64,000 nt of DNA from a virus, in the IMG/VR virus record IMGVR_UViG_3300043775_001834, positions 1 to 64,000 of that record, one strand, 5' to 3'. Every line of letters begins with the position of its first letter. Positions within the stretch are counted from its first letter, which is position 1. Below the pieces are notes generated by a model. The model ran no database searches, was not told where the DNA came from, and worked only from the letters and a program-made list of their open reading frames with translations. A program made the position numbers and the translations under genes. Positions 1,187-59,417 of this stretch are shown in pieces.

Positions 1187-1495
1187 ATGAAAACATTTAA
1201 TGAACTTAGAGCTCTTATAACTGAAGCAAACAAATTTTCTTCTCATGGATTTACATTTACTATCATGGGAGGTAAAGACCGAGACGGATCATATGTTAGT
1301 TTCTTACCTGACATCAAAACTCTCGATACTTATTCTAAAGATGAAATGGCAGGATGGATTGATTCAATCTTTAATAATATGGATTTCTTTAGAGATTGCA
1401 TGATTTGGGAAAAAAATCATGTTGCAGCCGGATTAGTTTTTCGCATTAACGCTAATTATTTAGCAGATTCATTACTAAAAGAATTCAAATCATAA
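1187..1495 (+). CDS. Small protein with N-terminal capsid-targeting-like tag
   Basis: The 102-residue protein begins MKTFNELRALITEA, which resembles the T4 capsid targeting sequence MKTYQEFIAEA with a few residues inserted; the I-T-E-A end fits gp21-type cleavage after Glu. The remainder has no recognised domain and no membrane segment. A GATAAATACTATATG element, close to the T4 late promoter TATAAATA, lies immediately upstream. It shares one base with the next tagged gene, so the two are probably cotranscribed and co-translated. I infer an internal head protein of unknown activity. Confidence 0.6.
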   Translation: MKTFNELRALITEANKFSSHGFTFTIMGGKDRDGSYVSFLPDIKTLDTYSKDEMAGWIDSIFNNMDFFRDCMIWEKNHVAAGLVFRINANYLADSLLKEFKS

Positions 1496-1857
1496 TGAGA
1501 ACATTTAAAGAATATCTTCTAGAAGAAGGTCGTTTTACTGAAGCAGAACTATTAGAACTGAACGAAAATTTAAAATCTGAGCTTACTCCTGAAGAACAAG
1601 CTAAAGTAGATGCTGCAATAGAAGCATTTTGTGCTGAATATATGAACAACAAATCTATTAAAGACCTTAACGAAGAACTTACTAACGAAGGATTTTTAGG
1701 ATCTATTTTCGGAGGTCTTACCGGTTTTGCTTTAGGTTCATCTATTGGGAAAATTATTGCTAATGTTTTAGGAATAGAAAAAGGCGTAGTTTATGATATG
1801 TTAACTAGTCGTTTAGTTGGTGCTGCTTTAGGTGCTGCTTTAGGCAAAAGAATATAA
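1495..1857 (+). CDS. Capsid-targeting-tagged protein with a glycine-zipper membrane-like C terminus
   Basis: The 120-residue protein begins MRTFKEYLLEEG, a capsid-targeting-like sequence. Residues 20-60 are an acidic helical linker that contains a further ELNEEL and ends TNEG. The last 50 residues are Gly/Ala-rich and hydrophobic (GFLGSIFGGLTGFALGSS and LVGAALGAALGKRI), with repeated GxxxG spacing as in glycine-zipper membrane peptides. After removal of the tag the protein could insert into or perturb a membrane, but this is inference. The gene overlaps the preceding tagged gene by one base and is followed one base later by the RuvC-like gene. Confidence 0.65.
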   Translation: MRTFKEYLLEEGRFTEAELLELNENLKSELTPEEQAKVDAAIEAFCAEYMNNKSIKDLNEELTNEGFLGSIFGGLTGFALGSSIGKIIANVLGIEKGVVYDMLTSRLVGAALGAALGKRI

Positions 1858-1858
1858 T

Positions 1859-2464
1859 ATGACTACAATAGGAATTGATTTCTCCATAAACTCTACTGCA
1901 GTAGCAATAAATAAAGATGGTAAACTTACTATCTTTTCGTTCGTTCCTAATTATCGTTCTGAACTTGCCGGATTTAAAATTCATAAAGCCTTATCTGATA
2001 TGATTAGTGTTATTTCTTACGAAAAAGGAGGTAACACTAAAGACGCGTTAGCCGATCAAAGAATAAAACTACAAAATGCTGACAATCTATCAGATCAAAT
2101 AATTGAAGCAATAAAACCTCACATAACAGAAAATCCAGAAATAAGAATCGAAGGATTCTCTTTCGGATCTAAAGGAAATTCATTTATCGATTTGGTATCA
2201 TTCAATACTTTCCTGAAAGTTAAGATTATTCAATCTTATGGCCATTGCATAGATGTGGTGCCACCAAAGTCTCTAAAGAAAATATACACCGGAAACGGAA
2301 ACGCTTCAAAATGTGATATGTTGCGTAAGTTCTTGGAAGTAAAAGACACTCCTTTCAAATTAAGACTTGTAGAATTAGGACTTGATCGAGCAGAGGAATT
2401 TACTCTACCAAAACCAATCGACGACATCATAGATTCAATTGCTTTGTCTTGGGTTTCACTATAA
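1859..2464 (+). CDS. RuvC-like Holliday junction resolvase / RNase H-fold nuclease
   Basis: This 201-residue protein fits the RuvC family in length and acidic-residue spacing. The first strand TTIGIDFSINSTAVAI carries the first Asp. IRIEGFSFGSKGN carries the Glu. The C-terminal helix PIDDIIDSIALS carries the final acidic pair, preceded by the NASKCDM segment typical of the Lys-containing helix of viral RuvCs. It is expected to cut four-way junctions in branched phage DNA before packaging, the job done by gp49 (endonuclease VII) in T4. The start one base after the preceding stop is the first ATG of the domain. Confidence 0.78.
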   Translation: MTTIGIDFSINSTAVAINKDGKLTIFSFVPNYRSELAGFKIHKALSDMISVISYEKGGNTKDALADQRIKLQNADNLSDQIIEAIKPHITENPEIRIEGFSFGSKGNSFIDLVSFNTFLKVKIIQSYGHCIDVVPPKSLKKIYTGNGNASKCDMLRKFLEVKDTPFKLRLVELGLDRAEEFTLPKPIDDIIDSIALSWVSL

Positions 2465-2580
2465 CAAGCAAACCTTGGGTTTCCCTTGGCTTTGCCTCGG
2501 AATAAACTTCTTCAATTTCCTTGAATACAAGTAATCATTATATGACTTTAAGGCCTGTACTGTTTCATAAAGTCAATATA
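2465..2580 (-). repeat. Copy A of a long non-coding inverted repeat pair (copy B at 59475-59592)
   Basis: Read on the minus strand, this intergenic stretch aligns without gaps for about 80 bases to 59475-59556. Shared blocks include TTGAYTWTATGAAAC, GTCATATAAYGATTAC, TTGKATTCRAGGAAA and TTCCGAGG, followed by a variable tail ending in AGGTTTG. It holds three CCTYGG motifs at 2473, 2484 and 2495, exactly 11 bases apart. The short stem CTTG/CAAG in the core is kept in copy B as CTTG/CGAG, a wobble change. Function is unknown: a structured RNA, a protein-binding array or a replication site are all possible. Confidence 0.75.
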
Positions 2581-2585
2581 TTTAA

Positions 2586-2598
2586 AGATATATACTAT
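2586..2598 (+). promoter_or_regulatory. Late-promoter-like element
   Basis: GATATATAC lies directly before the ATG at 2599. It matches the GATATATA(A/C) element found before many virion genes here and resembles the T4 late consensus TATAAATA. The spacing to the start is unusually short. Confidence 0.45.
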
Positions 2599-2907
2599 AT
2601 GAAAACATTCTTAAACTACGCAGAATTCGTTGAATTAAACGAAGAAAATAAAAATCCACCAGATATTGGCTTATATAGTAAAGGTGGCCGAAGAGCTATT
2701 AAAGGAACTGGATATGTCGACAAAGAAAAGGCAGAATCTAGTTGTAAAAAATTAGATGCATTAAAAAATAAAGGTGAACATCAATGGGCTATGTCTATTG
2801 CTACTACAATGATGAACCGAGCAGAAAAGCATGAACATCAAACCGAAGGTATGAGAGATGCCATTAAGGTTTATAAAGAGTGGATCGAGAAAAACAAGAA
2901 AAAATAA
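2599..2907 (+). CDS. Small basic protein with capsid-targeting-like tag
   Basis: I chose the ATG at 2599 rather than the in-frame ATG at 2521. The upstream 26 codons run through the conserved non-coding repeat, whereas 2599 gives MKTFLNYAEFVELNEEN, a capsid-targeting-like sequence. The 102-residue product has a basic middle, a glycine-containing KGGRRAIKGTGYVDKEK segment and a helical basic C terminus ending KNKKK. No domain is recognised. I infer an internal head protein, possibly DNA-associated because of its charge. Confidence 0.6.
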   Translation: MKTFLNYAEFVELNEENKNPPDIGLYSKGGRRAIKGTGYVDKEKAESSCKKLDALKNKGEHQWAMSIATTMMNRAEKHEHQTEGMRDAIKVYKEWIEKNKKK

Positions 2908-10507: not shown

Positions 10508-11569
10508 ATGAATTTTACAAGAGACTTTTTAAATGAAGTTCTTATCTGTAGAGAATCTATAAAAGTACTTCTTAACGAAGGTACTGTTGTAACAATAAAT
10601 GCAGGAGATGAATTTACTCGCATAAATGATATTGTTGCGGTAAGTGAAAACTATGGTAAAGAAATAGAAGAACTAGCAGAACGTGTACAGATCAAAAGAA
10701 AATACGGTCAATATGGTTCCATGTCCGCAAATAGTTCTGCACCAGTTAGAGACAGAATAGTTGAATTTGTAGGTAAAAAATACTGCAATGAGGAAGAACT
10801 TCAAAATTTCTTACTTAAATTAGAAGAAGATCGAGGAACTTCTTTCAACCAAAAACAATGGTTTGATAGAAATCAAAAATATTTTCAATCATTTAAAAAT
10901 GAAGGTCAACAAGTATGGACCCTTTCTAAATTCGGTAAACGAGTACTAGAACACATATTAAAAAACAAAACAAAACCAATGGTAAACGAATCGAAAATTG
11001 GACTATTTAAGTTCACTACAATAAATGAATCAAAATCCGAACCTATTTTCGAAGGTTCAGTAAATTTAAGTAATCAATTTGCTTTAGTTCTTGTTGGTGG
11101 ATCTATTGGTGCTACAAAAACATTCCCAATTTTTGTTGGTAGAGATATGGGTAGCATAGTAGAAACTGGAGATGATAAAGATGCATTGGTTTCTGTTAAA
11201 AATCAAAGAAATAAAACACTAAGTCCTGGTGAAAAATCTTACTACGGAATGTCGTACAAAGTAATTGAATTGACTAAAAGCAAAGTAAAACAAATCAACA
11301 ACCTTATTGCTTTTCAAGATAAATCTGATGATGCAGAAGTTTCTGAATCAGAATTATTTGAAAGTCATGAAGAACAAATTAAGAAAGAATGCATTTCTAG
11401 ACTTTCTGAGTTCTTTGGTTGTTCTCCAGGTAATTTGTCGAAATTCAAATTTGATGGTAGTGATAACATCAAAGAACTTACTAAATCACTTAGATCTAGT
11501 AGTGATGTAGGAACTGAAGCTTATTATAAAGTAGCTATTGAAATGGCTAAAAAGGATTTAGGTCTATAA
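10508..11569 (+). CDS. Tagged putative internal head protein with several gp21-type cleavage sites
   Basis: The 353-residue protein begins MNFTRDFLNEVLICRES and soon repeats the cleavage-like signature as VLLNEG. Further copies appear as MVNES and TINES around residues 160-180. Between them lies an unassigned domain; a second unassigned region (SNQFALVLVGGSIGATKTFP) follows. Several (L/I/V)NE-(S/G/A) sites suggest that the protease cuts it into pieces during head maturation, as happens to T4 core proteins. No enzymatic motif is recognised. Its stop overlaps the next tagged start by one base. Confidence 0.6.
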   Translation: MNFTRDFLNEVLICRESIKVLLNEGTVVTINAGDEFTRINDIVAVSENYGKEIEELAERVQIKRKYGQYGSMSANSSAPVRDRIVEFVGKKYCNEEELQNFLLKLEEDRGTSFNQKQWFDRNQKYFQSFKNEGQQVWTLSKFGKRVLEHILKNKTKPMVNESKIGLFKFTTINESKSEPIFEGSVNLSNQFALVLVGGSIGATKTFPIFVGRDMGSIVETGDDKDALVSVKNQRNKTLSPGEKSYYGMSYKVIELTKSKVKQINNLIAFQDKSDDAEVSESELFESHEEQIKKECISRLSEFFGCSPGNLSKFKFDGSDNIKELTKSLRSSSDVGTEAYYKVAIEMAKKDLGL

Positions 11570-11913
11570 TGAGACTTAAAAAATTCAATGATTTTGTTAA
11601 TGAAGCTGAGGTTAGATATTCGATCGAAAGACTTCAATTAGCCAAAAGGACTTGGAGTTCTGATGATGAGGCAAAAGAAAAATTTGCTAAAAAGAATGAA
11701 GATGCTAAGAACATCAATGCATTTATGACTAAAGATGAAGAACGAGAAGAAACTTATCGCTTTATATCTTACGAAGAAGGAATCTCATTTAATATAATCT
11801 TACGAGAAAATGGAAAGGTTATTATTTCTAATTCATATCCTGACGAAGAGAAAAGAAATTTCGATCAAGATTGTAAACTAATAATAGGAAAAACAATTAA
11901 AACAAATGCCTAA
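11569..11913 (+). CDS. Small capsid-targeting-tagged protein
   Basis: The 114-residue protein begins MRLKKFNDFVNEAEV, a clear member of the tag family with a predicted cut after Glu. The mature part is charged and helical (KRTWSSDDEAKEKFAKKN), followed by a predicted beta segment (GISFNIILRENGKVIISN). No known domain. It sits in a translationally coupled run of tagged genes, overlapping both neighbours by a few bases. Confidence 0.65.
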   Translation: MRLKKFNDFVNEAEVRYSIERLQLAKRTWSSDDEAKEKFAKKNEDAKNINAFMTKDEEREETYRFISYEEGISFNIILRENGKVIISNSYPDEEKRNFDQDCKLIIGKTIKTNA

Positions 11914-12163
11914 TTATATACCATCATTTGATGAATATCTTAACGAATCTTCAGAAGATCGTAGAACACCTGAAGAAAAGATTCGAGATGGAATTGCCGC
12001 GTTAAAGCAATCAATAGACAAGCTACTGAATTCGTGTAAAGAGAATCCAGAAAAGATTCCGATATTTAAAGCTCAAATTGCAGTGCTAAACGCAAAAATT
12101 AATGTATTTAACGCACAAACTAATTTGCGAAGAGTACAAAAAAATTACACATATTCAAAATGA
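11906..12163 (+). CDS. Small capsid-targeting-tagged helical protein
   Basis: The 85-residue protein begins MPNYIPSFDEYLNESSED, matching the tag. The remainder is helical and Gln/Lys/Asn-rich (NAKINVFNAQTNLRRVQ) with no recognised domain. It starts eight bases inside the upstream gene and its stop overlaps the next start by four bases, the usual coupling in this cluster. Confidence 0.65.
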   Translation: MPNYIPSFDEYLNESSEDRRTPEEKIRDGIAALKQSIDKLLNSCKENPEKIPIFKAQIAVLNAKINVFNAQTNLRRVQKNYTYSK

Positions 12164-12819
12164 AATTAACAACATACGAAGAATATCTAAATGAAAACAT
12201 AAATGAATTTGGCCCTTTAGCTGGTTCAGGTAATGTTCGAGCAGATGAACTAAATAACCTGCAACGAGAAGCTGCAAAGAAAAGTGAAAGAGGAGAAACT
12301 GTTTATATAGTAGGTGCTAAAAACGGATCTTATAAATTATCAAAATATTTCGAAAAGGGAAATACTTATGCAGCATATTATAACGGTATGCCGCAAGTAG
12401 TAGAAGGAATTTTAGAAAATGAAAATTTTTTAAATGAAGCTCTTAAAGACATTACGATAAGTGATACAGAAGCAGAAGAAATTTTTGACGAAATCAAGCG
12501 TCTTACTAAATTACATAAAGAAAAGGGATTTGTTTCCGGTGAAGTTTCCGTAGATGGATTCGCTAAATCTTCAGGAGCATTTGGATTAAATCCAGACGAT
12601 AAAAACCTTAAAATTGCTGGCATCTCTGCAACTACATTCGGAGTTTTTGCATGTATAACAACTCAAGCTAATATTGTAGTTTGTTATGTCACTTTAGGTT
12701 ACGATACGTTAAAGAAAAAATTAAAACTAGGAAGTTATTCTCTTACTTTTTATAGTGGTAGAGAATCTCATTTCAATCAAATAGCTAGACAATACAAAAA
12801 AACAATATACAACAAATAA
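12160..12819 (+). CDS. Capsid-targeting-tagged protein, unknown function
   Basis: The 219-residue protein begins MKLTTYEEYLNENINEFGP. An internal NENFLNEALKD lies near residue 90 and would be a second protease site, dividing the product into two parts. The second part has a predicted beta-rich region ending in a basic tail (SHFNQIARQYKKTIY). No active-site motif is seen. Confidence 0.65.
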   Translation: MKLTTYEEYLNENINEFGPLAGSGNVRADELNNLQREAAKKSERGETVYIVGAKNGSYKLSKYFEKGNTYAAYYNGMPQVVEGILENENFLNEALKDITISDTEAEEIFDEIKRLTKLHKEKGFVSGEVSVDGFAKSSGAFGLNPDDKNLKIAGISATTFGVFACITTQANIVVCYVTLGYDTLKKKLKLGSYSLTFYSGRESHFNQIARQYKKTIYNK

Positions 12820-12820: not shown

Positions 12821-13390
12821 ATGAAACACATACCTACATACGAAGAATTCGTAAACGAATCAGTACTAAACGAAGGAAGAGTTAAAGCAGCTACATTACT
12901 TCAAGAAATAATAGACGGTAATACTTCTAGAGCAGAAGGTATTAAAATGTCTAAAGACTTAGCTGAACACTATCTGTATTGGTTGAGAACTTCTCCTTAC
13001 GGCAAGAAAAATACAGATTTGCCTCTATATATGCTAATCAAAGCTTCATTTAATTGGGGTATTGAAAGACAATTAGATAAAAAATTAAAAGTAGAGCTAG
13101 ATACATTGAAAACTACAATCAACAAACCAATGAATGAAGGTTTTAATGCAAGCTATTGGGAAGGTTATCATGAAAAATCTGCAAAAATTCCAAATCCAAC
13201 GGATATGCAAATTCAACAAGAAGTAGAAGCTTCGGTTGAAGAATGGAACGATAATAATGAAAACGGGAAAGAGAATGAAGTAACTCCTGCAGGTGAAAAG
13301 AAAGTTTTAGCTCTTGCAAAACAATTCGTTAAAGCAAAAAAATATATTTGCTCAGATATTATTGATGCAATGATAGCTCAAGAATCATAA
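12821..13390 (+). CDS. Capsid-targeting-tagged protein with tandem cleavage sites
   Basis: The 189-residue protein begins MKHIPTYEEFVNESVLNEGR, with two consecutive (V/L)NE sites, and has another at PMNEGFNASYWEG near residue 105. Residues 25-90 contain an aromatic helical segment (LAEHYLYWLRTSPYGKK). The C-terminal part is acidic, then Lys-rich. No family is recognised; it ends the block B cluster of tagged genes. Confidence 0.65.
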   Translation: MKHIPTYEEFVNESVLNEGRVKAATLLQEIIDGNTSRAEGIKMSKDLAEHYLYWLRTSPYGKKNTDLPLYMLIKASFNWGIERQLDKKLKVELDTLKTTINKPMNEGFNASYWEGYHEKSAKIPNPTDMQIQQEVEASVEEWNDNNENGKENEVTPAGEKKVLALAKQFVKAKKYICSDIIDAMIAQES

Positions 13391-30749: not shown

Positions 30750-30752
30750 AAC

Positions 30753-34278: not shown

Positions 34279-34303
34279 AAAACAAAAACAATAATAAATT
34301 AAA

Positions 34304-35932: not shown

Positions 35933-37546
35933 ATGCCAGGATTTGTAAATAGAGACGAAACCTCAAACGGTAAACCAACACCAGCTTCGAGAAACATCGT
36001 CAGTAAAGCACTTAAATCATTATCTTCCTTCGGGATGATGTATGATGATATGGTGCTGAAGAATTCTAAAGCTATCGGTATCAATGAAGACCAATATGGT
36101 TGGAGACTTGATCCGAGAAATGTTGCTGGAGGTGAATATGATGATTATGCACTTTTTGCTAATTTGTCAATGACCGACATCAATCTTCGTAAATCAATTT
36201 CCATCTTTGATAAATCATACCCTAAGAAAAGAGAAGACCTTAGAAAATTCGCTATCCAAGATGAGATAGAAGATATTCTTGATACTCTTTGTGATGAGTG
36301 TGTAGTTTATGACGACAAAAATTACTTTTGTATGCCATTATCTTTTGATGATGATACATTAGAACCTACAACATTAGAAGCAGTTAAAATCGCTTTAGAT
36401 ACTAATTTTAAAAGAATCTATCAATATTTTGGATTCAATAATGATATTGCCGCTTGGTCTTATTTTAGAAAATGGTTAGTTGATGGTTATCTTGCATTTG
36501 AGATAATCTATGACAAAGAACAATCTCGAATCATCGGATTCAAAGAACTTGATCCGATAAATCTTGAACCTGGAATTGACAAAGAAGGTAAGAAAATTTG
36601 GAAACAATTTAAAGGTATGCCAAATAAAGAGAGAGTTGTTTATGATTCTCAGGTTATTTACATCTCTTATGCTAACGTTAATACCGTAAATCGAGTTTCT
36701 TATGTTGAAAGACTTATTCGTTCTTTTAACTTACTTAGGATTATGGAACACTCAAGAGTTATTTGGGCTACCGTTAATGCTTCGTTTAAAACTAAGTTCG
36801 TAATTCCAGTTGGTGGTAAATCGAAAACTAGAGCAAAACAATCTCTTGGAGTTTTAATGCAAAACTACAGAGAGCAAATAGATTTTGATACTGAATCAGG
36901 CGAATTAAAAGTTAATGGTAAAGCAATGATGCCATTTAACAAAGAATATTGGTTACCATCAGGTGATGCTGGTGAACCTACAATTGAGACTATCGGAAAC
37001 GATGGTCCAGACCTTTCAGATACTGATGCTCTTAAATATTTCAGAGAGAAATTAATTAAAGTATCTAAAATTCCACTTTCTCGTTTTGATATGGAATCCC
37101 CACCTTCATGGGAAATGAATGCTGAGGGTATGACTAGAGATGAGATTAAATTTGGACGTTTTGTTACTCGTTTACGTTCAGTTTTTCAAGAAATACTTAC
37201 AAAACCACTTTGGATTCAAATGTGTTTGGACTTCCCTGAAATAAAGGAAGATGATGCATTTAAAGCCCAAATCGGGGTAAAATACAACACAATGAACATC
37301 TTTGAAGAGATGAAAGAAATCGAAATCTTACAGAAAAGATTAGATTTCGTAACTTCAATGAAAGATGGTCTTGTTGATACAGATGCAAACATGAATGAAA
37401 TAAAATACTTTGCATCGGAATTCTTAATTCAAAGATTCTTAGGTTTATCCAACGACGATTTACGTCTTAATAAGAAACTAAAAGGTATCGAAGATGTAGA
37501 AAGAAGAGAAGCTGCAAAAAAGGATGCCGAAGCAACTGGAATGTAA
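35933..37546 (+). CDS. 20: Portal protein gp20
   Basis: The 537-residue protein fits T4 gp20 in length and pattern. It has a wing domain with FNNDIAAWSYFRKWLVDGYL, AFEIIYDKEQSRIIGFKELD, PINLEPGIDKEGKKIWKQF and LLRIMEHSRVIWATVNAS. The stem/crown part reads YFREKLIKVSKIPLSRFD, followed by EGMTRDEIKFGRFVTRLR. Twelve copies form the head vertex through which the terminase packages DNA. It heads the portal-protease-capsid block. Confidence 0.9.
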   Translation: MPGFVNRDETSNGKPTPASRNIVSKALKSLSSFGMMYDDMVLKNSKAIGINEDQYGWRLDPRNVAGGEYDDYALFANLSMTDINLRKSISIFDKSYPKKREDLRKFAIQDEIEDILDTLCDECVVYDDKNYFCMPLSFDDDTLEPTTLEAVKIALDTNFKRIYQYFGFNNDIAAWSYFRKWLVDGYLAFEIIYDKEQSRIIGFKELDPINLEPGIDKEGKKIWKQFKGMPNKERVVYDSQVIYISYANVNTVNRVSYVERLIRSFNLLRIMEHSRVIWATVNASFKTKFVIPVGGKSKTRAKQSLGVLMQNYREQIDFDTESGELKVNGKAMMPFNKEYWLPSGDAGEPTIETIGNDGPDLSDTDALKYFREKLIKVSKIPLSRFDMESPPSWEMNAEGMTRDEIKFGRFVTRLRSVFQEILTKPLWIQMCLDFPEIKEDDAFKAQIGVKYNTMNIFEEMKEIEILQKRLDFVTSMKDGLVDTDANMNEIKYFASEFLIQRFLGLSNDDLRLNKKLKGIEDVERREAAKKDAEATGM

Positions 37547-37602: not shown

Positions 37603-39516
37603 ATGAGCAATAATAAATATCTACTTGTATTAGAAAGATCGGAAGGAAATCTTACATCTTCTAAGGATGGAGATAAATATGTGTTGGAAGGTGTTTTCAC
37701 CGAAATAGGCATTAGAAACAAGAATAATCGTATTTACGATGAAGCTGAGTTAATGCCACACATACAAGACTTACAAGAAAAACTTAAAGGTAATAAATTA
37801 CTTGGAGAACTTGACCACCCTAAATCTTTTGATATATCGTTAAAGAATGCTTCGCATATTATTGAAGACATTCAATACGATAAAGCTAGCAAAAAAGTTA
37901 CTGGTAGAATCAGATTACTTAATACTGATGCTGGAAAACAAGCAATGGCATTAGTAGATGCTGGTGTACCTCTTCATATTTCATCTAGAGCTGCCGGTGT
38001 TGTTGAATCTAATGGCCATGTTAAAATTAAAAAAATGTTTACTTATGATTTAGTTGCAGATCCTGGATTTGCTAATGCCGAATTAAAAAGAGTAAACGAA
38101 TCTTTTGGATTAGACAATGATTCATTGACTCAGATCTACGAAATAGAATCTGATTTGAGTGAATCTGATATGCCAGTTTTAATCTATCAACAAGAAGAAA
38201 CACCCCAAACCACAATAAACGAAACAAAAAACGACAAAATGGATCCTAAAAAATACATTACCGTTGAAGATTTTAACGAATATACTAAACATGTTAAAAA
38301 CGAAGTAGAAAATCTTAAAAAGTCTTTAACCGAATCATCAGCTAAAGATTCTTCATCTGTTAATGAAGGATTGATACGTTACACCGAAGAAACTGCAAAA
38401 AGAGTTAATCAAATTAATTCTTATGTTGAAAAACTAGCAGAATCAGTTGATGGTTTAATTTCTCATAATGATTATATCATTGAAAACCTTGAAAGAGTTA
38501 AAAACTATGCTGAATTAGTTGGTGAAAAATCTAATCAAGGAATTAACTACTCAGAAAAACTTTCTGAATCAGTTGACCACTTAATTGAGTATACTAAATT
38601 AGTTGCTGAAATGAGCGATAGAGGTATTGAATATACTAAAGTAGTTGCAGAAAAAGCAGATCAAGGAATTGAATTTAGTAAATATCTTGCTAACGAATCT
38701 AATTCACGTTGGACTTATCAACAACATATGAATGAACAATTAGATAATGTAATTTCTCATAATGATTATATTGTTGAAGGTACATCATCAATCATTGAAT
38801 ATACTGAATACTTAAAAGAAAATACTCAAAATCTTGCAGGTTACCTTAATCATATCGTTAAAGAAATTAATGAAGGTAAAGTTACTGGTTTAGAAAATGC
38901 TGAATCGATTGATGAAAACGCTATCGTATATTCCACTCCAAATAGGTCAATCTTAGCTAAGGTTGAAGGTAACGAAGAAGATGCATTCGAAAAATCTTTA
39001 ACTGACAAATTGAATACTATTTTAGAAAGCGCTAAATCAGTTAACGAATCAGTAGATGCTAACAAATTACACTTCTTAAATTTCCTATCAGAAAATAAAA
39101 GAAATCAATTTGAGTCATTAACTCCTGAGAAAAAAGACGAAGTTATTGCAGCTTTTGAAGGTAATAAATTTTATGGATCAGTTGATGCTGAAAGATTATA
39201 CGAATCAGTATTTATTGGATTTAAACCGGTTACAAATTGGTTAACTAATATTCCTGCTAAATATAAAGATTCTTGGAATGGTTTAAATGAATCACAAAAG
39301 AATGCTATTAAGGCTCAAGCTTCAGTAAAAGTTTTAGATAACCAATATAAAATCGATGATTTCTGGGCTACCAGAGATTTAAGATCTGTAAAAGTTGATG
39401 CTCCATTAAATGAAGGTGCTGCACCGGCAATTGTTAATGAGTCTGCAGAATATAAAACTCCAGCTAATTATATGGACACTGTACAGGCTGAATTAAGAAG
39501 AAGATTTAACAGATAA
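37603..39516 (+). CDS. 21: Prohead protease (gp21) fused to scaffold (gp22-like)
   Basis: Residues 1-175 are a gp21-family serine protease: GVFTEIGIRNKNNRIYDEAE, the catalytic-His segment KLLGELDHPKS, the catalytic-Ser segment PLHISSRAAGVV, then TYDLVADPGF. The remaining 460 residues are helical, acidic and repetitive. About 255-430 contains imperfect repeats such as EYTKLVAEMSDRG, EYTKVVAEKADQG and SHNDYIIEN/SHNDYIVEG. There are many NE-S/NE-G sites, and the end is basic (QAELRRRFNR). In T4 the protease (gp21) and scaffold (gp22) are separate genes. The protease should cleave tags and scaffold during maturation. Confidence 0.85.
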   Translation: MSNNKYLLVLERSEGNLTSSKDGDKYVLEGVFTEIGIRNKNNRIYDEAELMPHIQDLQEKLKGNKLLGELDHPKSFDISLKNASHIIEDIQYDKASKKVTGRIRLLNTDAGKQAMALVDAGVPLHISSRAAGVVESNGHVKIKKMFTYDLVADPGFANAELKRVNESFGLDNDSLTQIYEIESDLSESDMPVLIYQQEETPQTTINETKNDKMDPKKYITVEDFNEYTKHVKNEVENLKKSLTESSAKDSSSVNEGLIRYTEETAKRVNQINSYVEKLAESVDGLISHNDYIIENLERVKNYAELVGEKSNQGINYSEKLSESVDHLIEYTKLVAEMSDRGIEYTKVVAEKADQGIEFSKYLANESNSRWTYQQHMNEQLDNVISHNDYIVEGTSSIIEYTEYLKENTQNLAGYLNHIVKEINEGKVTGLENAESIDENAIVYSTPNRSILAKVEGNEEDAFEKSLTDKLNTILESAKSVNESVDANKLHFLNFLSENKRNQFESLTPEKKDEVIAAFEGNKFYGSVDAERLYESVFIGFKPVTNWLTNIPAKYKDSWNGLNESQKNAIKAQASVKVLDNQYKIDDFWATRDLRSVKVDAPLNEGAAPAIVNESAEYKTPANYMDTVQAELRRRFNR

Positions 39517-39685: not shown

Positions 39686-41308
39686 ATGTATTTAATTAAC
39701 GAACAAGAAATATTCGGTAAATGGGCTCCAATCATTGAGTCTACTACAGGAATTCAAGAGCGTTCTAGAGTAGAGTGGATGTCTAAATACTGTCATTACC
39801 ATGAATTGTATGAAAACAATAACTTAGCTCAATTAGGCGCAGTAAACGGTATGGGAGCTACAAGATTCCCTGACAGTCCTGGAAGTCAATCTGCTTTCGC
39901 AGACCAAACTACAGGTTCAGGTGATAAAGCTCACACACTTCTTCCATTAGCAATGCAAGTTGCTGCTCAAACTATCGGTCTTGACTTGGTACCAGTTGTA
40001 CCAATGCCTGGTCCAATGGGTGTATTAACATATTTAGACTTCGTATATGCTGGTGGTCAAACATCTTCTACTACAAATGCTCCATTGTTAATCAAAATAA
40101 ACTACGGTTCTACTGCAGTTCCTGCATTCGTAGTTGGTGGAACTTCTGCTGCTACTAATGGTGTTACTCTTGCTTATGTTGGAGCTTCACGTTTAGATGG
40201 TTATCCAATCTTCCACGTTAGAGGTACTCTTTCTGGTGCTACAATCCTTGCAACTTATGCTACTATCTTAGGTGCTTCTGGTATCTCTGGTGTAACTGGT
40301 GCTTCTACTGGATTAAACGTAGAATTAGTAAAAGCTTTAGAAGACCACATTACCGGTTTCTCAGGTACTGCTTTAACAAGCAATGATTATACAGGTTCTG
40401 ATATTAACGATCCTTACTCTAGAAGTTTAGGTGAGTCTACTATGGACAATGTAATGAACTTAAGTCTTTTCAACAAATCAGTTGAAGCTAAAACTTTCCA
40501 AGTTGCAGCTGCTGTTACTAGAGAGCAAGTTCAAGATTTGAAACAATTCGGAGTAGATGCTGTATCTCAAGTAGAATCAGTACTTATCAATGAATTGACT
40601 CAATCAATCAACAAAAACATCCTTTCTAGATTATTTGCTCTTGGAGAAACTAACCACAAAAATGTTGTTAATTCTCAAGGAATCAACTTCTTCTTGAACA
40701 TTGGTGCTACTTCAGTTGTTGTATCAGGTACATCTGCTAACACTCAAACTAACTTTGGTGCTTACATCCAAGATACTACTCTTAGAGCTGCAACTATTCT
40801 TGCTTCTGAGGTTACAAACTCAGCTTCTGAGAATCTTTCAACTCGTCAGAGAAAAATTATGTCTAAGATCCTTGCAATCGCTAACCTTATTGCAATTAGA
40901 GGTCGTAGAGGACCAGCTACTTTCATCGTTACAAACGGTCAAGTATGTTCTGCTCTTCAAGATATAGCTGGTTTCGTTCCTGCTCCTATGGCTAATACTA
41001 TTAACCAAATGAGTGGTTCACTTTACCCAATTGGAACTGTTGCAGGTCTTGCTATCTACAACGATCCTAACATGGCTTGGAACGATACTCGTTTCTTAGT
41101 TGGACGTAAAGGTGATGGTAACTCTCCAGGTTTAGTATTCATGCCTTACTTAATGGCTGAATCAGTACAAACAATTGCTGAAGGAACTATGGCTCCTAAA
41201 GTTGCTGTTAAATCAAGATACGCTTTAGTTGAAGCTGGTTTCCACCCAGAAACTATGTATATCACTTCAGGTGTATTTATGTCTAGCCTTCTTGGTTCTT
41301 TAGTATAA
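39686..41308 (+). CDS. 23: Major capsid protein gp23
   Basis: The 540-residue protein begins MYLINEQEIFGKWAPIIEST, like the propeptide of gp23 (LLGKWKPL in T4). It then has the likely start of the mature chain around AVNGMGATRFPDS. The HK97-fold parts include LLPLAMQVAAQTIGLDLVPV, EAKTFQVAAAVTREQVQDL and the C-terminal GMxAPKVAVKSRYALVEAGF-like end. A long leader, an upstream late element and a strong terminator fit very high late expression. The N-terminal propeptide should be removed by the protease encoded just upstream. Confidence 0.93.
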   Translation: MYLINEQEIFGKWAPIIESTTGIQERSRVEWMSKYCHYHELYENNNLAQLGAVNGMGATRFPDSPGSQSAFADQTTGSGDKAHTLLPLAMQVAAQTIGLDLVPVVPMPGPMGVLTYLDFVYAGGQTSSTTNAPLLIKINYGSTAVPAFVVGGTSAATNGVTLAYVGASRLDGYPIFHVRGTLSGATILATYATILGASGISGVTGASTGLNVELVKALEDHITGFSGTALTSNDYTGSDINDPYSRSLGESTMDNVMNLSLFNKSVEAKTFQVAAAVTREQVQDLKQFGVDAVSQVESVLINELTQSINKNILSRLFALGETNHKNVVNSQGINFFLNIGATSVVVSGTSANTQTNFGAYIQDTTLRAATILASEVTNSASENLSTRQRKIMSKILAIANLIAIRGRRGPATFIVTNGQVCSALQDIAGFVPAPMANTINQMSGSLYPIGTVAGLAIYNDPNMAWNDTRFLVGRKGDGNSPGLVFMPYLMAESVQTIAEGTMAPKVAVKSRYALVEAGFHPETMYITSGVFMSSLLGSLV

Positions 41309-41956: not shown

Positions 41957-41966
41957 TATTATAAAT

Positions 41967-43304: not shown

Positions 43305-43806
43305 TTATCATATAAAAAGACAGAACTTAGGTAAAACTCCTACTAAATATGGAATCGTACTTAAAGGACTTCCACCTAGGCATCAACGAATATTAAAGGA
43401 AAATCCAGTAATTAAGAAATATGCTGATGATGACCTTTTCATTAATGCCATATTTAGGATCGAAGATGGGAGAATAAGAGTATCTCATTTGAATCGGCCA
43501 TTTGTTCAACCAGGGTCAAAAGACATATCATCTTATTCATCCGTTAAAGACTCATATAAAGTATTTGATTGGAACTGTGCTTATTGCAATAAAGAAATTC
43601 AATCTCGAATAGACACATATGTTCCGAGTAATTTTACTTGTGAAAAATGTTTCAAATACTACCTTAAGGGTAATGAAAAAATTGACCAACGAGTTATTGA
43701 ATCTTCATTAGCTTTTACCGAAAAATGTAAGAGAATGATGATAGATAATCAGAAATCATTCATAAAATATATACGAAAAAATGAAAAACCGTCTCGCATA
43801 CTTTAA
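43297..43806 (+). CDS. Zinc-ribbon-type protein, unknown function
   Basis: The 169-residue protein has a basic N terminus (YHIKRQNLGKTPTKYG) and two CxxC pairs: NCAYCNKE near residue 92 and FTCEKCFKYY near residue 114. These form a probable zinc ribbon. The C terminus is basic and helical. It overlaps the start of the tagged ATP-grasp gene by 26 bases. A neck or head-vertex role is possible from its late-gene context, but no family is recognised. Confidence 0.5.
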   Translation: MANYHIKRQNLGKTPTKYGIVLKGLPPRHQRILKENPVIKKYADDDLFINAIFRIEDGRIRVSHLNRPFVQPGSKDISSYSSVKDSYKVFDWNCAYCNKEIQSRIDTYVPSNFTCEKCFKYYLKGNEKIDQRVIESSLAFTEKCKRMMIDNQKSFIKYIRKNEKPSRIL

Positions 43807-45277
43807 CGAATTTGTAATTAATGAGGCTGTAAAACCGGCACCAAAAAATCCTGTTAAAATTGTACTTCTTTCCAATATTAGTGAGGAATCATACACTGTT
43901 CCTGCAGTTGATAAAGAATGTAAAAAACGTGGAATCGAATTCCGCATCATTGATGTTAATACATGTTCATTGACTAAAAGCTCAGATGGAGATTATTTTA
44001 CTATCGTTGATAAAACCAAGAAACCTTTTAAAATAGATTCAGAAGATACTGCAATTTTAACTCGTAGAGGAATCGTTAGAAATACTTATACTCGAGATAT
44101 TGTATCTCAATTAGAAGATAATAATTTCTTTGTAGTAAACACTTTAAGTTCAGTTTTAGCTTGTGAAAACAAATACGTTACTTCAAAAATACTTATGGAT
44201 GCCGGTCTTCCGGTTCCTAAAATGGCAATGGTCGATGGAGAAGATTCCATTGAACCGGCAGTCGAACAAGTTGGTGGCAATTTTCCGGTAATCCTTAAAA
44301 TGCTTTCCGGTTCACAAGGAATTGGAGTTTCTATTATAGATTCATTAGCATCTCTTAAATCAGTATTACAAACTTTATGGAAAGTCGATCCAACCGTAGA
44401 AACTCTTATACAAGAAAAGATCGAATCAGAATATGATTTACGTATTCACGTTTTAACTAAGCGTTTCAATTCACCTAGACCGGAAGATACTGATTCGGTA
44501 CTTTTAGGTTATATGAGAAGAAACAAAGTTGATAAAGACTTTAGAACTAACTACTCATTAGGCGGTTCAGTTGAAAAAACCAAATTAACACCAGAACAAG
44601 AAAGAATTGCGATCGAATCGGCTAAGGCAGTAGGTTGTAATTGGTGTGGAGTTGATATTATTGTTGATGAGAAAACTGGTAAAAACTATGTACTAGAAGT
44701 TAATTCATCTCCAGGTACACAAGGATTAAAAAAGGCTACTGGTGTAGATGTTATTAAAGACATCATCGATTTTCTATCAGATAGACAAAATTGGATTCGT
44801 TCACGTAGAATTATTGGATTTAGAGAAGTAATTACAATTCCTGGAATTGGTGATATTGTTTCTAAGTTCGATACTGGTAATGGTTCACTTTCATGTTCAT
44901 TAACTTATGATAAAATGAAAATTAGTGAAGATGGCAAACAATGTAATTGGGAATTGAACGGTAAAAAATATGTGCATCAGATAATTGGAATTTCTAATGC
45001 AGAAGTTGGTAATGATATTGATGAAAGACCTATTATAGAAATGGATATCGCATTTGCTGGTAAAACTTACAAAGAAGTTCAAGTTTCATTAGTTAATAGA
45101 ATCGACAAATCTACTAAATTTTTAGTAAATAGGAAATTCATGGAAAGAATTGGTTGTTCAGTATCGCCATATAAAACTTTCGTAGTAACTTCATTTGATG
45201 GTGAATATCATCCAGGTGAAGCTAAAGGAAGTGCACATGCTGGAATAACATTTGAAAATAAAAAAACAAAGAAATAA
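43781..45277 (+). CDS. Tagged RimK-like ATP-grasp ligase fused to an ATP-dependent-zinc-protease-like domain
   Basis: The 498-residue protein begins MKNRLAYFNEFVINEAVK, a capsid-targeting-like tag. Residues 25-335 are an ATP-grasp enzyme of RimK type: NKYVTSKILMDAGLPVPKMA, FPVILKMLSGSQGIGVSI, LIQEKIESEYDLRIHVL, and the Mg-binding NWCGVDIIVDE/YVLEVNSSPGTQG. Residues 345-480 (IIGFREVITIPGIGDIVSKF, then DTGNGSLSCSL) match the domain that accompanies RimK in bacteria (COG4067, retropepsin-like DTG motif). RimK adds glutamates to ribosomal protein S6; the substrate here is unknown. The tag suggests packaging and delivery into the host, as for T4 Alt. Confidence 0.85.
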   Translation: MKNRLAYFNEFVINEAVKPAPKNPVKIVLLSNISEESYTVPAVDKECKKRGIEFRIIDVNTCSLTKSSDGDYFTIVDKTKKPFKIDSEDTAILTRRGIVRNTYTRDIVSQLEDNNFFVVNTLSSVLACENKYVTSKILMDAGLPVPKMAMVDGEDSIEPAVEQVGGNFPVILKMLSGSQGIGVSIIDSLASLKSVLQTLWKVDPTVETLIQEKIESEYDLRIHVLTKRFNSPRPEDTDSVLLGYMRRNKVDKDFRTNYSLGGSVEKTKLTPEQERIAIESAKAVGCNWCGVDIIVDEKTGKNYVLEVNSSPGTQGLKKATGVDVIKDIIDFLSDRQNWIRSRRIIGFREVITIPGIGDIVSKFDTGNGSLSCSLTYDKMKISEDGKQCNWELNGKKYVHQIIGISNAEVGNDIDERPIIEMDIAFAGKTYKEVQVSLVNRIDKSTKFLVNRKFMERIGCSVSPYKTFVVTSFDGEYHPGEAKGSAHAGITFENKKTKK

Positions 45278-45684
45278 TGAGTAAACTACCTACATATGAA
45301 GAATTCTTAAACGAATCTACATCATTAGCGGTTGGCGGAGAACATTGGAATGTGTATATTGCTAACAAAGACACAGAAGTTAAAAATATCAAAGGAACTA
45401 GAAAGGTAAAAGTATCAGTTGGAACTGTAATAAGTGCTGCTGGAGGTGGATATTGGGTAAACATCGATCGTAGTGTTGAAACTGGAATCGAGTCTCTTGA
45501 AGGCAACCCAGATTTTGATGTCCTTAACGATTCAACTTGGCCTAAAACTGTTGAACTAACTAAGGAAATAGAAAAATGGGCAAGAGATACTGATCGTCTT
45601 ATGCAAAGAGACCCTAAAAAGGCACAATCGGTTATCAATAATCGAAACCGAGTTATAGAAGACATTAAAAAATTATTAAAGTAA
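45277..45684 (+). CDS. Small capsid-targeting-tagged protein
   Basis: The 135-residue protein begins MSKLPTYEEFLNESTSLAVG, one of the best tag matches. The mature part has a beta-rich domain (HWNVYIANKDTEVKN, KVSVGTVISAAGGGYWVNID), then a basic helix ending KKLLK. It overlaps the ATP-grasp gene by one base, so the two are translationally coupled and may cooperate. Confidence 0.65.
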   Translation: MSKLPTYEEFLNESTSLAVGGEHWNVYIANKDTEVKNIKGTRKVKVSVGTVISAAGGGYWVNIDRSVETGIESLEGNPDFDVLNDSTWPKTVELTKEIEKWARDTDRLMQRDPKKAQSVINNRNRVIEDIKKLLK

Positions 45685-45685
45685 T

Positions 45686-45913
45686 ATGGAACACTTACCT
45701 ACATTCAATGAATTCGTAAACGAAAAAGCTGAGAACTATATGACGATAGAAAATCTTAAAACTATCAAAAGAAATGTAGAAATTCTTTTAGCTATGGATC
45801 CCATTAAAATAGACGAAATCTTAAAGAATGGGCATGATTGGGCAGAAGACCACATTTCAGTAGCAAACGAAAACTTAGACCAAGTAACAAAATTCTTTAC
45901 TAACGAACAATAA
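45686..45913 (+). CDS. Small capsid-targeting-tagged protein
   Basis: The 75-residue protein begins MEHLPTFNEFVNEKAENY. The rest is a short helical acidic module (KRNVEILLAMDPIKIDEILK) without a known family. It is the last gene before a strong terminator and the switch to early-type promoters. Confidence 0.65.
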   Translation: MEHLPTFNEFVNEKAENYMTIENLKTIKRNVEILLAMDPIKIDEILKNGHDWAEDHISVANENLDQVTKFFTNEQ

Positions 45914-57676: not shown

Positions 57677-57685
57677 GATATATAA
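57677..57685 (+). promoter_or_regulatory. Late-promoter-like GATATATAA
   Basis: An exact copy 12 bases before the ATG of the GIY-YIG gene. Confidence 0.55.
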
Positions 57686-57696
57686 AATAAAACTTT

Positions 57697-58563
57697 ATGT
57701 TTTATTGCTATATATTACTAGATCCTACTAAGCCAGGAATTTATCAATATGAAAATTTCAAATTTGATTTCGAACCCTTTTATGTAGGTAAAGGCAAATC
57801 AAATAGAATTAATTCTCATGATAAAATAAAAGATACAAAGACTCATAAAGGAGCAAAAATACAGAAGATTAAAAAATTAGAGTTAGAAGTTATTAAAATC
57901 AAATTATTTGAAAATTTAACTGAATCAACATCTTTTGAATTAGAGGTATCAACTATTTCTATTATTGGTAGAAAAGACAAATCTAAAGGCCCTTTACTTA
58001 ATTTAACTGATGGAGGTGAAGGTACTTCAGGTAAAATTTACACTAAAGAAGAAAAATTGCATAAATCAATTAAATCAAAAGAATGGTGGTTTTTATTAAA
58101 AGAGGATAGAATTAGTTATGAAGATTATATTAAAAAACTATCATCCGGAGTATCAAAAGCTCAAACCGGAGTTCCTTATGAAATTAGATATGGAGATCGA
58201 GCCGAAGAAATAAGAATTAAAAAATCTGAATGGACTAAAGAAAATTTTCATAGAACTGGATTAGGTCAAATGGATTTTAAAGGAGAGAATAATCCTATGT
58301 TCGGTAAATCTATAAAAGATATATGGATTGAAAAATATGGCATAGAAGAAGCTGAAATCAAACATAAAGAGTGGATCGCTAATAAATCTGGTAAAATTCC
58401 TCATAATAAATTAAATATTCAAATTTCTCAAAAAGATAAAGAAGGTAATTTAATAAAAATATGGAACGGATATCCGGAAGGATTTTCTAAACCGAATATA
58501 TGTAAAGCTCTCAAAGGTGAAAGAAAATTTGCTAATGGATTTATATGGGAATATGTTAGATAA
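57697..58563 (+). CDS. GIY-YIG homing endonuclease
   Basis: The 288-residue protein has a GIY-YIG-type nuclease N terminus (FYCYILLDPTKPG, EPFYVGKGKSNRINSH, and a catalytic Glu near SFELEVSTISIIG). NUMOD-type DNA-binding modules follow (GENNPMFGKSIKDIWIEKYG and SQKDKEGNLIKIWNGYPEG, continuing to the KALKGERKFANGFIWEY end). It is a free-standing homing endonuclease gene inserted between structural and tagged genes, with its own late-type promoter. Confidence 0.88.
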   Translation: MFYCYILLDPTKPGIYQYENFKFDFEPFYVGKGKSNRINSHDKIKDTKTHKGAKIQKIKKLELEVIKIKLFENLTESTSFELEVSTISIIGRKDKSKGPLLNLTDGGEGTSGKIYTKEEKLHKSIKSKEWWFLLKEDRISYEDYIKKLSSGVSKAQTGVPYEIRYGDRAEEIRIKKSEWTKENFHRTGLGQMDFKGENNPMFGKSIKDIWIEKYGIEEAEIKHKEWIANKSGKIPHNKLNIQISQKDKEGNLIKIWNGYPEGFSKPNICKALKGERKFANGFIWEYVR

Positions 58564-58581
58564 ATAAATAAAGAAATAATT

Positions 58582-58857
58582 ATGAAACATATACTAACAT
58601 TCGAAGAATTCTTAAACGAATCAACGATAAAAGAAAGCGCAGAAGCATTCAACATATCTACGATAAAAATAAAAGATGTTGTAGAATTAACAAATACTAG
58701 GACTGGTGATGTAGGACAATACACGGTAAAGAAAATACATGGTGGTTCAAGTAATATCAAAGAGATTGAATTATTGAACCGTAGTAAACAACCTCTAATT
58801 TTGTATTATAGTAAAGAACGTGGCCTACAAAACTTTAAAGGAGATACTTACAAATAA
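58582..58857 (+). CDS. Small capsid-targeting-tagged protein
   Basis: The 91-residue protein begins MKHILTFEEFLNESTIKES, almost the ideal tag. The mature part is a small beta domain (KIKDVVELTNTRTGDVGQYT, IKEIELLNRSKQPLILYYS) resembling an SH3-like fold. Its first 42 nucleotides are closely similar to those of the next gene, showing recent duplication or exchange of the tag-coding segment. Confidence 0.65.
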   Translation: MKHILTFEEFLNESTIKESAEAFNISTIKIKDVVELTNTRTGDVGQYTVKKIHGGSSNIKEIELLNRSKQPLILYYSKERGLQNFKGDTYK

Positions 58858-58868
58858 AAGAAATAATC

Positions 58869-59417
58869 ATGAAACATTTACTAACATTTGGTGAGTTCTT
58901 AAATGAAGCTAAATCTATCTCTGATTTATCTTCTAGAGATGAACAGCCTATGATTAAAGGAATTGCTGAAATTATTAATCGAGTAAAAGATCCTGTAAAT
59001 AAAAGAGAAATGGTAGATGCATCAATCGAAGATTTTAAGAGAGAAGGAATTAACTTTGATTATGAAGAATTTAGAGATATTTGCAACGAAGAATTAATAA
59101 ATGAAGCAACTGATATTAAATTTGACGCTAAAGAATTTTTATCTGATTTAGAATCGAAAAACATAATAGATACAGGTGGGTATTTGTCATCAACTGGCAA
59201 CGGAGCTCGAGGAAAAAATAAATTATTCATTACTTCGTCTAAATATCAAGACTATGATGATTTCAATGCCATTATAAAAAATACATATAAAACAGTAGGT
59301 TCTACTTCTATGTCATCTGACGTATATACAAATGGAAAAATTCATTTTTTCTTTTATCCTACTAGAGGAAATGGAAATTATGAAATAGTAATTAGGAGAA
59401 AAAATTACAAAAGATAA
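58869..59417 (+). CDS. Capsid-targeting-tagged protein with a second internal site
   Basis: The 182-residue protein begins MKHLLTFGEFLNEAKSIS. A second cleavage-like sequence, NEELINEATDIKFD, lies near residues 72-85, so it may yield two mature pieces. The C-terminal part has Gly/Asn-rich loops (GGYLSSTGNGARGKNKLF) and ends with a basic strand EIVIRRKNYKR. No known family. Confidence 0.65.
   Translation: MKHLLTFGEFLNEAKSISDLSSRDEQPMIKGIAEIINRVKDPVNKREMVDASIEDFKREGINFDYEEFRDICNEELINEATDIKFDAKEFLSDLESKNIIDTGGYLSSTGNGARGKNKLFITSSKYQDYDDFNAIIKNTYKTVGSTSMSSDVYTNGKIHFFFYPTRGNGNYEIVIRRKNYKR

What the first reader, a model, noticed from the sequence alone, without database searches (positions are those of the whole stretch)
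1187..59417. About twenty proteins share a T4-like capsid targeting tag: a large predicted cargo of internal head proteins
Proteins starting at 1187, 1495, 2599, 10508, 11569, 11906, 12160, 12821, 29409, 30417, 30753, 33138, 33745, 34304, 41967 (weak), 43781, 45277, 45686, 58582 and 58869 begin with variants of MKHILTFEEFLNES. The core is an aromatic, then E/D/N, then F/Y/W, then (L/V/I)-N-E before S/A/N. Seen directly in sequence. Established: T4 internal proteins (IPI-III, Alt) carry MKTYQEFIAE-type targeting sequences, are packaged in proheads, cut by gp21 after (L/I)-x-E, and injected. Inference: this phage has a much larger set, mostly of unknown folds, probably host-takeover or anti-defence effectors.
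Basis: partly seen in the sequence, partly recalled or inferred. Interest (0 to 1): 0.92.

Follow-up and report, generated by a model that had tools for sequence, protein, structure and literature searches.

The report
Capsid-tagged phage cargo and polyproteins
A group of very large uncultured viruses of bacteria marks about one in ten of its proteins with a short end-tag like the one phage T4 uses to load proteins into its head, and some of them string several such cargo proteins into one long chain with likely cutting sites in between, which suggests a far larger pre-packed toolkit delivered with the viral DNA than was known.

Summary
In the window 13 genes carry the strict tag [FYW]xx[FYW][LIV]NE at an ATG, none on the other strand; 5 more of the 20 listed are variants backed by orthologues, 10508 is uncertain, 41967 is not supported. 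In nine related phage records 243 of 2,319 crude gene calls are tagged (48 in a 294-kb sister) against 25 of 9,002 internal methionines; S-SSM5, PTm1, PAU and Lak-A2 show chance-like counts. The tag's conserved residues match the four positions mapped in the T4 capsid targeting sequence. The neighbouring head protease-scaffold is the protein richest in the same NE sites. New here: domains that follow a tag in one phage lie inside longer proteins in others, with the junction at the same motif (35 of 68 junctions, 8.8 expected; 32 of 61, 8.1 expected, without possible start-call artefacts; untagged control 18 of 145, 11 expected). Some relatives carry 779-1,029-residue proteins with 7-14 such sites by a relaxed motif. 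Best reading: T4-type internal head proteins, much expanded, some delivered as polyproteins cut in the prohead. Cleavage, virion location and injection are inferred, not shown.

The parts
1187..1495 (+). cargo gene, degenerate tag MKTFNELRALITE; orthologues in G002 and G006 have the canonical tag
1495..1857 (+). cargo gene, tag MRTFKEYLLE; orthologues in G002 and G006 tagged, G001 orthologue degenerate
2599..2907 (+). cargo gene, variant tag MKTFLNYAEFVELNE; orthologues in G002, G003, G006, G009 canonical
10508..11569 (+). 353-aa multi-domain protein with possible variant tag MNFTRDFLNE and internal sites LLNE, MVNE, TINE; its parts occur in other proteins of relatives
11569..11913 (+). tagged cargo gene, FNDFVNE^A
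11906..12163 (+). tagged cargo gene, FDEYLNE^S
12160..12819 (+). tagged cargo gene, YEEYLNE^N followed by INE
12821..13390 (+). tagged two-domain cargo protein: tag YEEFVNE^S, second site VLNE^G, junction PMNE^G with E at residue 106 (bases 13136-13138)
29409..30407 (+). tagged cargo gene, YEQFVNE^N; orthologues tagged in the six other records where one was found (G001, G002, G003, G006, G009, G010)
30417..30749 (+). tagged cargo gene, FKEFINE^A
30753..31430 (+). tagged cargo gene, YEDFILE^S
33138..33359 (+). tagged cargo gene, FDEWLNE^S
33745..34272 (+). tagged cargo gene, FADFVNE^A
34304..34660 (+). tagged cargo gene, FDEFVNE^H
35933..37546 (+). portal protein (phrog_213)
37603..39516 (+). 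head maturation protease (residues 17-297 match phrog_207) with long C-terminal part; 11 [LIVMFA]NE sites in all; taken as protease fused to scaffold
39686..41308 (+). major capsid protein (phrog_138), N terminus MYLINE^Q; [LIM][IL]NE kept in 78 of 78 relatives (50 distinct sequences)
43781..45277 (+). tagged RimK-like ATP-grasp protein, YFNEFVINE^A
45277..45684 (+). tagged cargo gene, YEEFLNE^S; the same protein is the second half of a 225-aa protein in G009 (junction ESAMNE^S)
45686..45913 (+). tagged cargo gene, FNEFVNE^K
58582..58857 (+). tagged cargo gene, FEEFLNE^S; its domain lies inside a 421-aa protein in G001 (nearest NE 8 residues off)
58869..59417 (+). tagged cargo gene, FGEFLNE^A

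Best explanation
The tag is a T4-type capsid targeting sequence. Its two aromatics bring the protein into the prohead core; the phage's own head maturation protease, which is fused to a scaffold, then cuts after (L/I/V)-N-E, leaving mature cargo inside the head to be ejected with the DNA. This clade of huge T4-related phages uses the route for about a tenth of its genes. Because any domain preceded by an NE site would be freed by the same protease, neighbouring cargo genes can fuse: one tag then carries a chain of domains, and the internal tags shrink to bare NE junctions. Shown: the tag, its spread, the sites in the scaffold, and the coincidence of junctions with sites. Inferred: targeting, cleavage, ejection, the direction of evolution, and a role in early takeover or counter-defence.
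For: T4-type portal, protease and capsid protein in the window. 243 of 2,319 calls tagged in nine records. Conserved positions equal T4 positions 4, 7 (targeting) and 8, 10 (processing) given in passages of PMC9026906; here aromatic at -4 and -1 in 195 and 197 of 243 N-terminal [LIV]NE. The protease-scaffold has the most [LIVMFA]NE sites of 95 calls in the record (11, 17.3 per 1,000 aa); 73 full-length orthologues have [LIVM]NE at 11.46 per 1,000 (46 distinct sequences: 11.56), portal 1.59 (71), capsid protein 4.41 (78). P1' is S/A/G in 67% of N-terminal and 33% of internal cases. Junctions: NE within 7 residues in 35 of 68 (null 8.8), exact in 11 (null 0.63); relaxed motif 51 of 68 (null 18.5); without 7 possible start-call artefacts 32 of 61 (8.05), exact 10 (0.57), relaxed 45 (16.8); control with untagged queries 18 of 145 (null 11.1), exact 1 (0.77). 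The only stretches of three or more residues under pLDDT 50 in the predicted 12821 structure are 7-19 (tag and two sites) and 103-106 (PMNE). Tagged genes sit side by side: 27 adjacent pairs in G001, 4.9 expected.
Against: No proteomics: cleavage, virion location and ejection are untested. 33 of 68 junctions have no NE within 7 and 17 have no relaxed site. The longest chains (1,016-1,029 aa) begin MAQVNKISSFKSFTEV, not a canonical tag. Tagged genes are no more variable than size-matched untagged ones (16 of 45 against 112 of 309 with a homologue, G001 to G002), which does not support rapid arms-race turnover. Mature parts do not resemble T4 internal proteins (1 of 140 hits phrog_2667 'internal head protein', E 6.1e-4). 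LR756500 tags use NE in only 11 of 24 and its scaffold has few NE sites. The tag is unevenly spread: in short contigs around the capsid gene it marks 118 of 516 calls at 70-90% capsid identity but 3 of 92 at 60-70% and 45 of 610 at 50-60%.
Confidence: 0.78

Rival explanations
1. Tagged proteins are prohead core or scaffold components that help build the very large head; they are cut and mostly expelled or stay as structural filler rather than acting in the host.
For: The scaffold itself carries the sites; several tagged genes flank portal and capsid genes (window 29409-34660, 43781-45913); T4 core proteins are cut by the same protease (PMC5694885 passages).
Against: Dozens of dissimilar small proteins in clusters, many far from the head genes; some look like enzymes: RimK-like ATP-grasp, HxGH nucleotidyltransferase PF01467.
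Confidence: 0.13
2. The multi-site proteins are ordinary multi-domain proteins; NE motifs are just flexible linkers that are never cut.
For: Cleavage not shown; AlphaFold only shows flexibility; 17 of 68 junctions lack even the relaxed motif.
Against: The junction motif equals the tag end and the scaffold sites; exact coincidence 11 against 0.63 expected, absent in the untagged control; junction-type motif density 1.14 per 1,000 aa in tagged against 0.14 in untagged proteins of ten records and 0.02-0.11 in T4, S-SSM5, PTm1 and PAU.
Confidence: 0.2
3. The tag is another kind of address, for example for a phage nucleus or for the cell membrane, or a translation-start element.
For: None found beyond its N-terminal position; a mild codon bias inside the tag.
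Against: Synonymous codon variation argues against a DNA or RNA element; the match to the mapped T4 residues and to scaffold sites fits head targeting. A phage nucleus was not tested for.
Confidence: 0.04

Closest known systems
T4 capsid targeting sequence and internal proteins IPI, IPII, IPIII and Alt
   Same: Short N-terminal peptide, two aromatics three apart, hydrophobic-x-Glu cut site, dissimilar mature proteins, T4-type protease and capsid protein.
   Different: 15-48 tagged genes per record instead of a handful; N at P2 in 182 of 243; tandem second site; cargo chains; protease fused to a long scaffold-like part.
P1 DarB capsid targeting sequence (PMC9024508)
   Same: N-terminal 30 residues suffice to bring a foreign protein to the capsid (abstract and passages).
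   Different: One 250-kDa protein and an unrelated signal; no shared tag across dozens of proteins is described in the passages seen.
Polyvalent proteins of phages and conjugative elements (Iyer et al. 2017, PMC5512222)
   Same: Many small domains in one polypeptide thought to be delivered with the DNA; the authors draw the analogy to polyproteins (passages).
   Different: Their proposed release is by embedded peptidases; here no Pfam family above cut-off, peptidase or other, in the six long chains scanned, and the likely release sites match the tag and scaffold sites.
phiKZ and SPN3US head maturation (PMC5694885, PMC10052503, PMC9026906)
   Same: Giant phages; Glu-specific head protease; several sites per propeptide (passages).
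   Different: There S/A-x-E or A-x-E motifs, eight processed SPN3US proteins (19 in 201phi2-1), several SPN3US propeptides over 100 residues; here one shared short tag.

Membership tests
T4 internal proteins with capsid targeting sequence | T4-type portal, head maturation protease and capsid protein in the same genome | tested here: met
   phrog_213, phrog_207, phrog_138
T4 internal proteins with capsid targeting sequence | N-terminal peptide of about 10-20 residues with the targeting aromatics at T4 positions 4 and 7 and processing residues at 8 and 10 | tested here: met
   T4 positions from PMC9026906 passages
T4 internal proteins with capsid targeting sequence | cut-site motif of the form (L/I)-x-E, shared with the scaffold | tested here: met
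   motif present in tags and enriched in the scaffold; the cut itself not tested
T4 internal proteins with capsid targeting sequence | present in the virion, trimmed, and ejected into the host | not testable with these tools
   uncultured phage, no proteomics
T4 internal proteins with capsid targeting sequence | sequence similarity of mature parts to IPI-III or Alt | tested here: inconclusive
   1 of 140 members hits phrog_2667 'internal head protein' at 6.1e-4; T4 mature parts are themselves diverse
Polyvalent proteins | several dissimilar domains in one polypeptide of a phage | tested here: met
Polyvalent proteins | embedded peptidase domain in many members | tested here: inconclusive
   no Pfam match above cut-off in 6 long chains; remote ones could be missed
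Virus polyprotein (functional sense) | protease-type sites at the domain boundaries of one translated chain | tested here: met
   sites coincide with homology boundaries well above two controls, though not at every boundary
Virus polyprotein (functional sense) | chain is cut into separate products | not testable with these tools
   needs virion mass spectrometry or an in vitro assay

The most novel reading that the evidence does not exclude
Huge T4-related phages deliver injected cargo as capsid-tagged polyproteins: chains of up to about a dozen small domains are loaded into the prohead on one tag and cut apart there by the head protease, so the capsid serves as a processing chamber and cargo sets evolve by fusing and splitting tag-bounded units.
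Probability: 0.62. Interest if true: 0.92.

Novelty: new variant of a known kind. Interest (0 to 1): 0.8.

Why it matters
If right, a sequence tag identifies much of the injected proteome of a whole group of uncultured huge phages at once: hundreds of mostly unknown proteins predicted to act at the very start of infection, a rich source of counter-defence and takeover functions. It would extend the T4 internal-protein system from a handful of proteins to about a tenth of the genes, and would show a capsid protease releasing polyprotein cargo, a delivery form not described for phages in the listings and passages seen here. It also gives short, portable loading tags and cut sites for packing proteins into phage heads.

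Tried and rejected
Rejected: 41967 as a tagged protein (orthologues untagged). Not supported: hypervariability of cargo; tagged genes are not less conserved than size-matched (60-350 aa) untagged calls in any of four directed comparisons (Fisher p 0.18 to 1; spurious ORFs among the untagged calls weaken this test). Argued against: a nucleotide-level element. The distant relatives PTm1 (2 of 325), PAU (1 of 298), cyanophage S-SSM5 (1 of 216) and Lak-A2 (3 of 465 calls, 400 of 541 kb, TAG read as Q) show only chance-like counts, so the expansion is not found in these four. T4 gave 5 of 274, of which two begin MKTYQEFIAE (IPII and IPIII by recall); T4 ipI (annotated) begins MKTFKEFTSTTTPVSTITE and is missed by the core, so the scan undercounts.

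A first junction test (22 families, 12 with NE within 6 residues, null 2.1) was replaced. In one search (208 junctions) coiled-coil and scaffold families gave false 'tags', so I dropped homologues of the window's 37603, 41931 and 35142 proteins and queries without the strict tag. Seven of the 68 junctions left may be start-call artefacts or internal repeats; one search gives the counts without them. The null assumes independent junctions; related phages make it optimistic.

Structure of the 1,016-aa chain: mean pLDDT 47.5, not used. Fold comparison of the 12821 model found nothing convincing (best Z 4.3, mostly residues 119-189). A tagged protein found in five records with an EKTDG motif that recalls ATP-dependent nucleic-acid ligases (A4; the motif reading is recall) has no hit in PDB sequences and none beyond chance level in Pfam or PHROGs: lead only. 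ADP-ribosyltransferase-like cargo is also only a lead (PF18760 E 0.0011, below cut-off; phrog_5470 E 2.5e-4). tblastn of two long chains (L236, L257) found no match in the phages collection at E 1e-3.

Literature: nine searches (one search returned none, one search showed 20 of 81, the letters search gave only unrelated papers). No title or abstract start listed describes such a tag in huge phages or phage cargo cut as polyproteins by the head protease. The library lacks most subscription papers. Read as passages only: PMC5694885, PMC3012670, PMC5512222, PMC10052503, PMC9391042, PMC9026906, PMC7824862, PMC12619734, PMC9024508, PMC12363816; the others were seen as listings.
Full report
What the record is. 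The window is bases 1-64000 of a 77,586-base virus record, 32% G+C; every ORF over 160 aa listed lies on the + strand. PHROG matches give a T4-type replication and head set: DNA polymerase, UvsX-like recombinase, ribonucleotide reductase, SbcCD-like nuclease, portal, head maturation protease, major head protein and large terminase. The nearest named records by capsid protein are an uncultured 462-kb phage (LR756500, 57% identity), then Lak megaphages (36-38%), PTm1 and PAU (32-34%). IMG/VR holds many closer relatives, among them a 294-kb record with 94% identical capsid protein (G001).

The tag. The strict form [FYW]xx[FYW][LIV]NE, near the start, stands at 13 of 426 open ATGs on the + strand and 0 of 67 on the - strand. 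Orthologues back 1187, 2599, 43781, 1495 and 30753; 10508 stays uncertain and 41967 fails. In nine related records, 243 of 2,319 crude gene calls are tagged, 182 of them ending NE: G000 15/97, G001 48/459, G002 35/355, G003 30/328, G006 19/235 (160,000 of 160,448 bases), G009 29/223, G010 20/116, G012 17/173, G013 30/333. The more distant LR756500 has 24 of 708, 11 with NE. The same expression after internal methionines hits 25 of 9,002 in the nine records. Around the capsid gene of 80 IMG/VR loci the tag marks 18 of 56 calls at 90% or more capsid identity, 118 of 516 at 70-90%, 3 of 92 at 60-70% and 45 of 610 at 50-60%, so its use is uneven. Gene calls are longest-ORF calls without a trained caller, so denominators are inflated and short genes are less sure.

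Match to T4. In T4, only the first ten residues of IPIII are required for packaging; residues 4 and 7 carry targeting and 8 and 10 processing, and the protease cuts after L/I-x-E (passages of PMC9026906). Anchoring only on N-terminal [LIV]NE in the nine records, the two upstream positions that correspond to T4 residues 4 and 7 are aromatic in 195 and 197 of 243 cases, against 12% and 13% in 607 internal [LIV]NE. The residue after the cut is S, A or G in 67% against 33%. The tag varies in synonymous codons.

The protease and its sites. Gene 37603-39516 joins a head maturation protease domain to a long C-terminal region. It has the most [LIVMFA]NE sites of any call in G000, G001 and G002 (11, 11 and 9), but not in LR756500. 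In 73 full-length orthologues [LIVM]NE runs at 11.46 per 1,000 residues (46 distinct: 11.56), against 1.59 in 71 portals and 4.41 in 78 capsid proteins. In LR756500, where tags are NE in fewer than half, the scaffold has few NE sites and no dominant P2 residue, a weak hint that tag and scaffold sites change together. All 78 full-length capsid proteins (50 distinct) carry [LIM][IL]NE within the first ten residues, although what precedes it varies.

Cargo as polyproteins. Many tagged proteins carry further NE sites, often as tandem NES-(V/I/L)-NE just after the tag, and in longer ones as ES(V)VNE^G/A. Taking only the part after the tag as query, so that the tag cannot guide the alignment, I collected places where it matches inside another protein, among 2,817 distinct calls (341 tagged) from seven records and the fetched loci. 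Of 68 distinct junctions, NE lies within 7 residues of the aligned cut in 35 (8.8 expected from random positions in the same proteins), exactly at it in 11 (0.63); with a relaxed motif 51 (18.5) and 16 (1.48). Without seven junctions that may be start-call artefacts or repeats: 32 of 61 (8.05), 10 (0.57), 45 (16.8) and 14 (1.35). The same procedure with untagged queries gives 18 of 145 (11.1) and 1 (0.77), relaxed 34 of 145 (31.6) and 4 (2.4). Against the reading, 33 of 68 have no NE near, and 17 not even the relaxed motif. The clearest cases: the window's 45277 protein matches residues 98-225 of a 225-residue G009 protein at 77% identity, tag EEFLNE^S replaced by ESAMNE^S; the window's 12821 protein has two domains joined at PMNE^G, the second is a stand-alone tagged protein in L243 and L251, and the two lie about 570 residues apart inside a 1,016-residue chain in L236. 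The predicted structure of 12821 (21 sequences, mean pLDDT 78.7) is helical; the only stretches of three or more residues under pLDDT 50 are 7-19 and 103-106, the tag with its two sites and the PMNE junction.

Long chains. Three relatives whose capsid protein matches at 54-63% in two segments (G012, G013, G016; in the other five of eight records searched no capsid gene was found, and most are fragments) carry 928-1,029-residue chains of mosaic domain order, starting MAQVN(K/R)ISSFKSFTEV, a possible degenerate tag. G013 and G012 also carry 913- and 779-residue proteins that begin with the canonical MNF(D/N)(Q/E)FLNE and have 9 and 7 sites by the relaxed motif, the first being the tag itself. 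A junction-type motif is eight times denser in tagged than untagged proteins of ten records (1.14 against 0.14 per 1,000 residues; the untagged figure includes the longest chains) and 0.02-0.11 in T4, S-SSM5, PTm1 and PAU. Some internal junctions still look like full tags, such as KVPTFKKFINE^S in a 395-residue G001 protein, as expected if neighbouring tagged genes fuse. Adjacent tagged pairs exceed all 5,000 shuffles in G001, G002, G003 and G009 (27, 18, 13, 16 against 4.9, 3.4, 2.7, 3.6); in G006 (6 against 1.5) and G010 (7 against 3.3) they do not exceed the largest shuffle.

What the cargo may do. Of 140 tagged proteins scanned together (from G001, G002, G003, G009, with a few of G006, G010 and the window), the commonest Pfam families at E 0.01 are CTP_transf_like (4), KTSC (3) and RimK-type ATP-grasp (2); 32 families were hit, 25 listed, most by one member and some below cut-off. 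The window's 43781 protein is RimK-like. HxGH nucleotidyltransferase domains occur both alone behind a tag (G003, G010) and as the second unit of longer proteins (G001, G009). T4 precedents for function are IPI, which inhibits the GmrSD nuclease (PMC3012670 passages), and IPIII, needed on one E. coli strain (PMC9391042 passages). That the present cargo acts likewise is inference.

Verdict. The tag and its expansion in this clade are solid; the reading as a T4-type targeting sequence is strong; cutting of cargo chains at NE junctions is well supported by comparison but untested. I file the tag under the T4 system as a new variant, and keep the polyprotein delivery as the bold, probable part.

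Noticed in passing
window 14754-16139 and 20826-22019: DNA polymerase apparently split in two genes: the first ends at position 494 and the second starts at 495 of phrog_262, with ribonucleotide reductase and other genes between.
   Followed up: no
window 39686-41308 and L003-L082: All 78 full-length capsid proteins of relatives carry [LIM][IL]NE at the very start; a second L-x-E^[NS] near residue 43 keeps L and E in many while x varies, possibly the capsid protein cut site.
   Followed up: partly
L227:2223-3518, L188:7941-9206, L223:3815-5128, L302:17679-18968, L289:5247-6536: A tagged protein conserved in five records (GGAYGHLxHPFE and EKTDG motifs) recalls covalent nucleotidyltransferases or ligases but has no convincing database hit.
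   Followed up: partly
G010 11434-12210 (L212:11434-12210): A tagged protein (ParB-like by recall of a DGHHRW motif) ends exactly with a second full tag, FSDFVNE, followed by the stop codon; a similar G001 protein continues through such a tag into another domain.
   Followed up: partly
window 41931-43304: Long protein just after the capsid gene with untagged relatives of 365-861 aa; weak tape-measure match.
   Followed up: no
window 31458-33122: 554-aa protein with no PHROG match whose C-terminal part is similar to small tagged proteins of the same head-gene block.
   Followed up: no
L254, L255, L256: Domain 1 of the 12821 protein (EGIKMSKDLA...) recurs at about 30-43% identity in three other contigs, in two of them next to an INE motif, so this unit may be widespread.
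   Followed up: no
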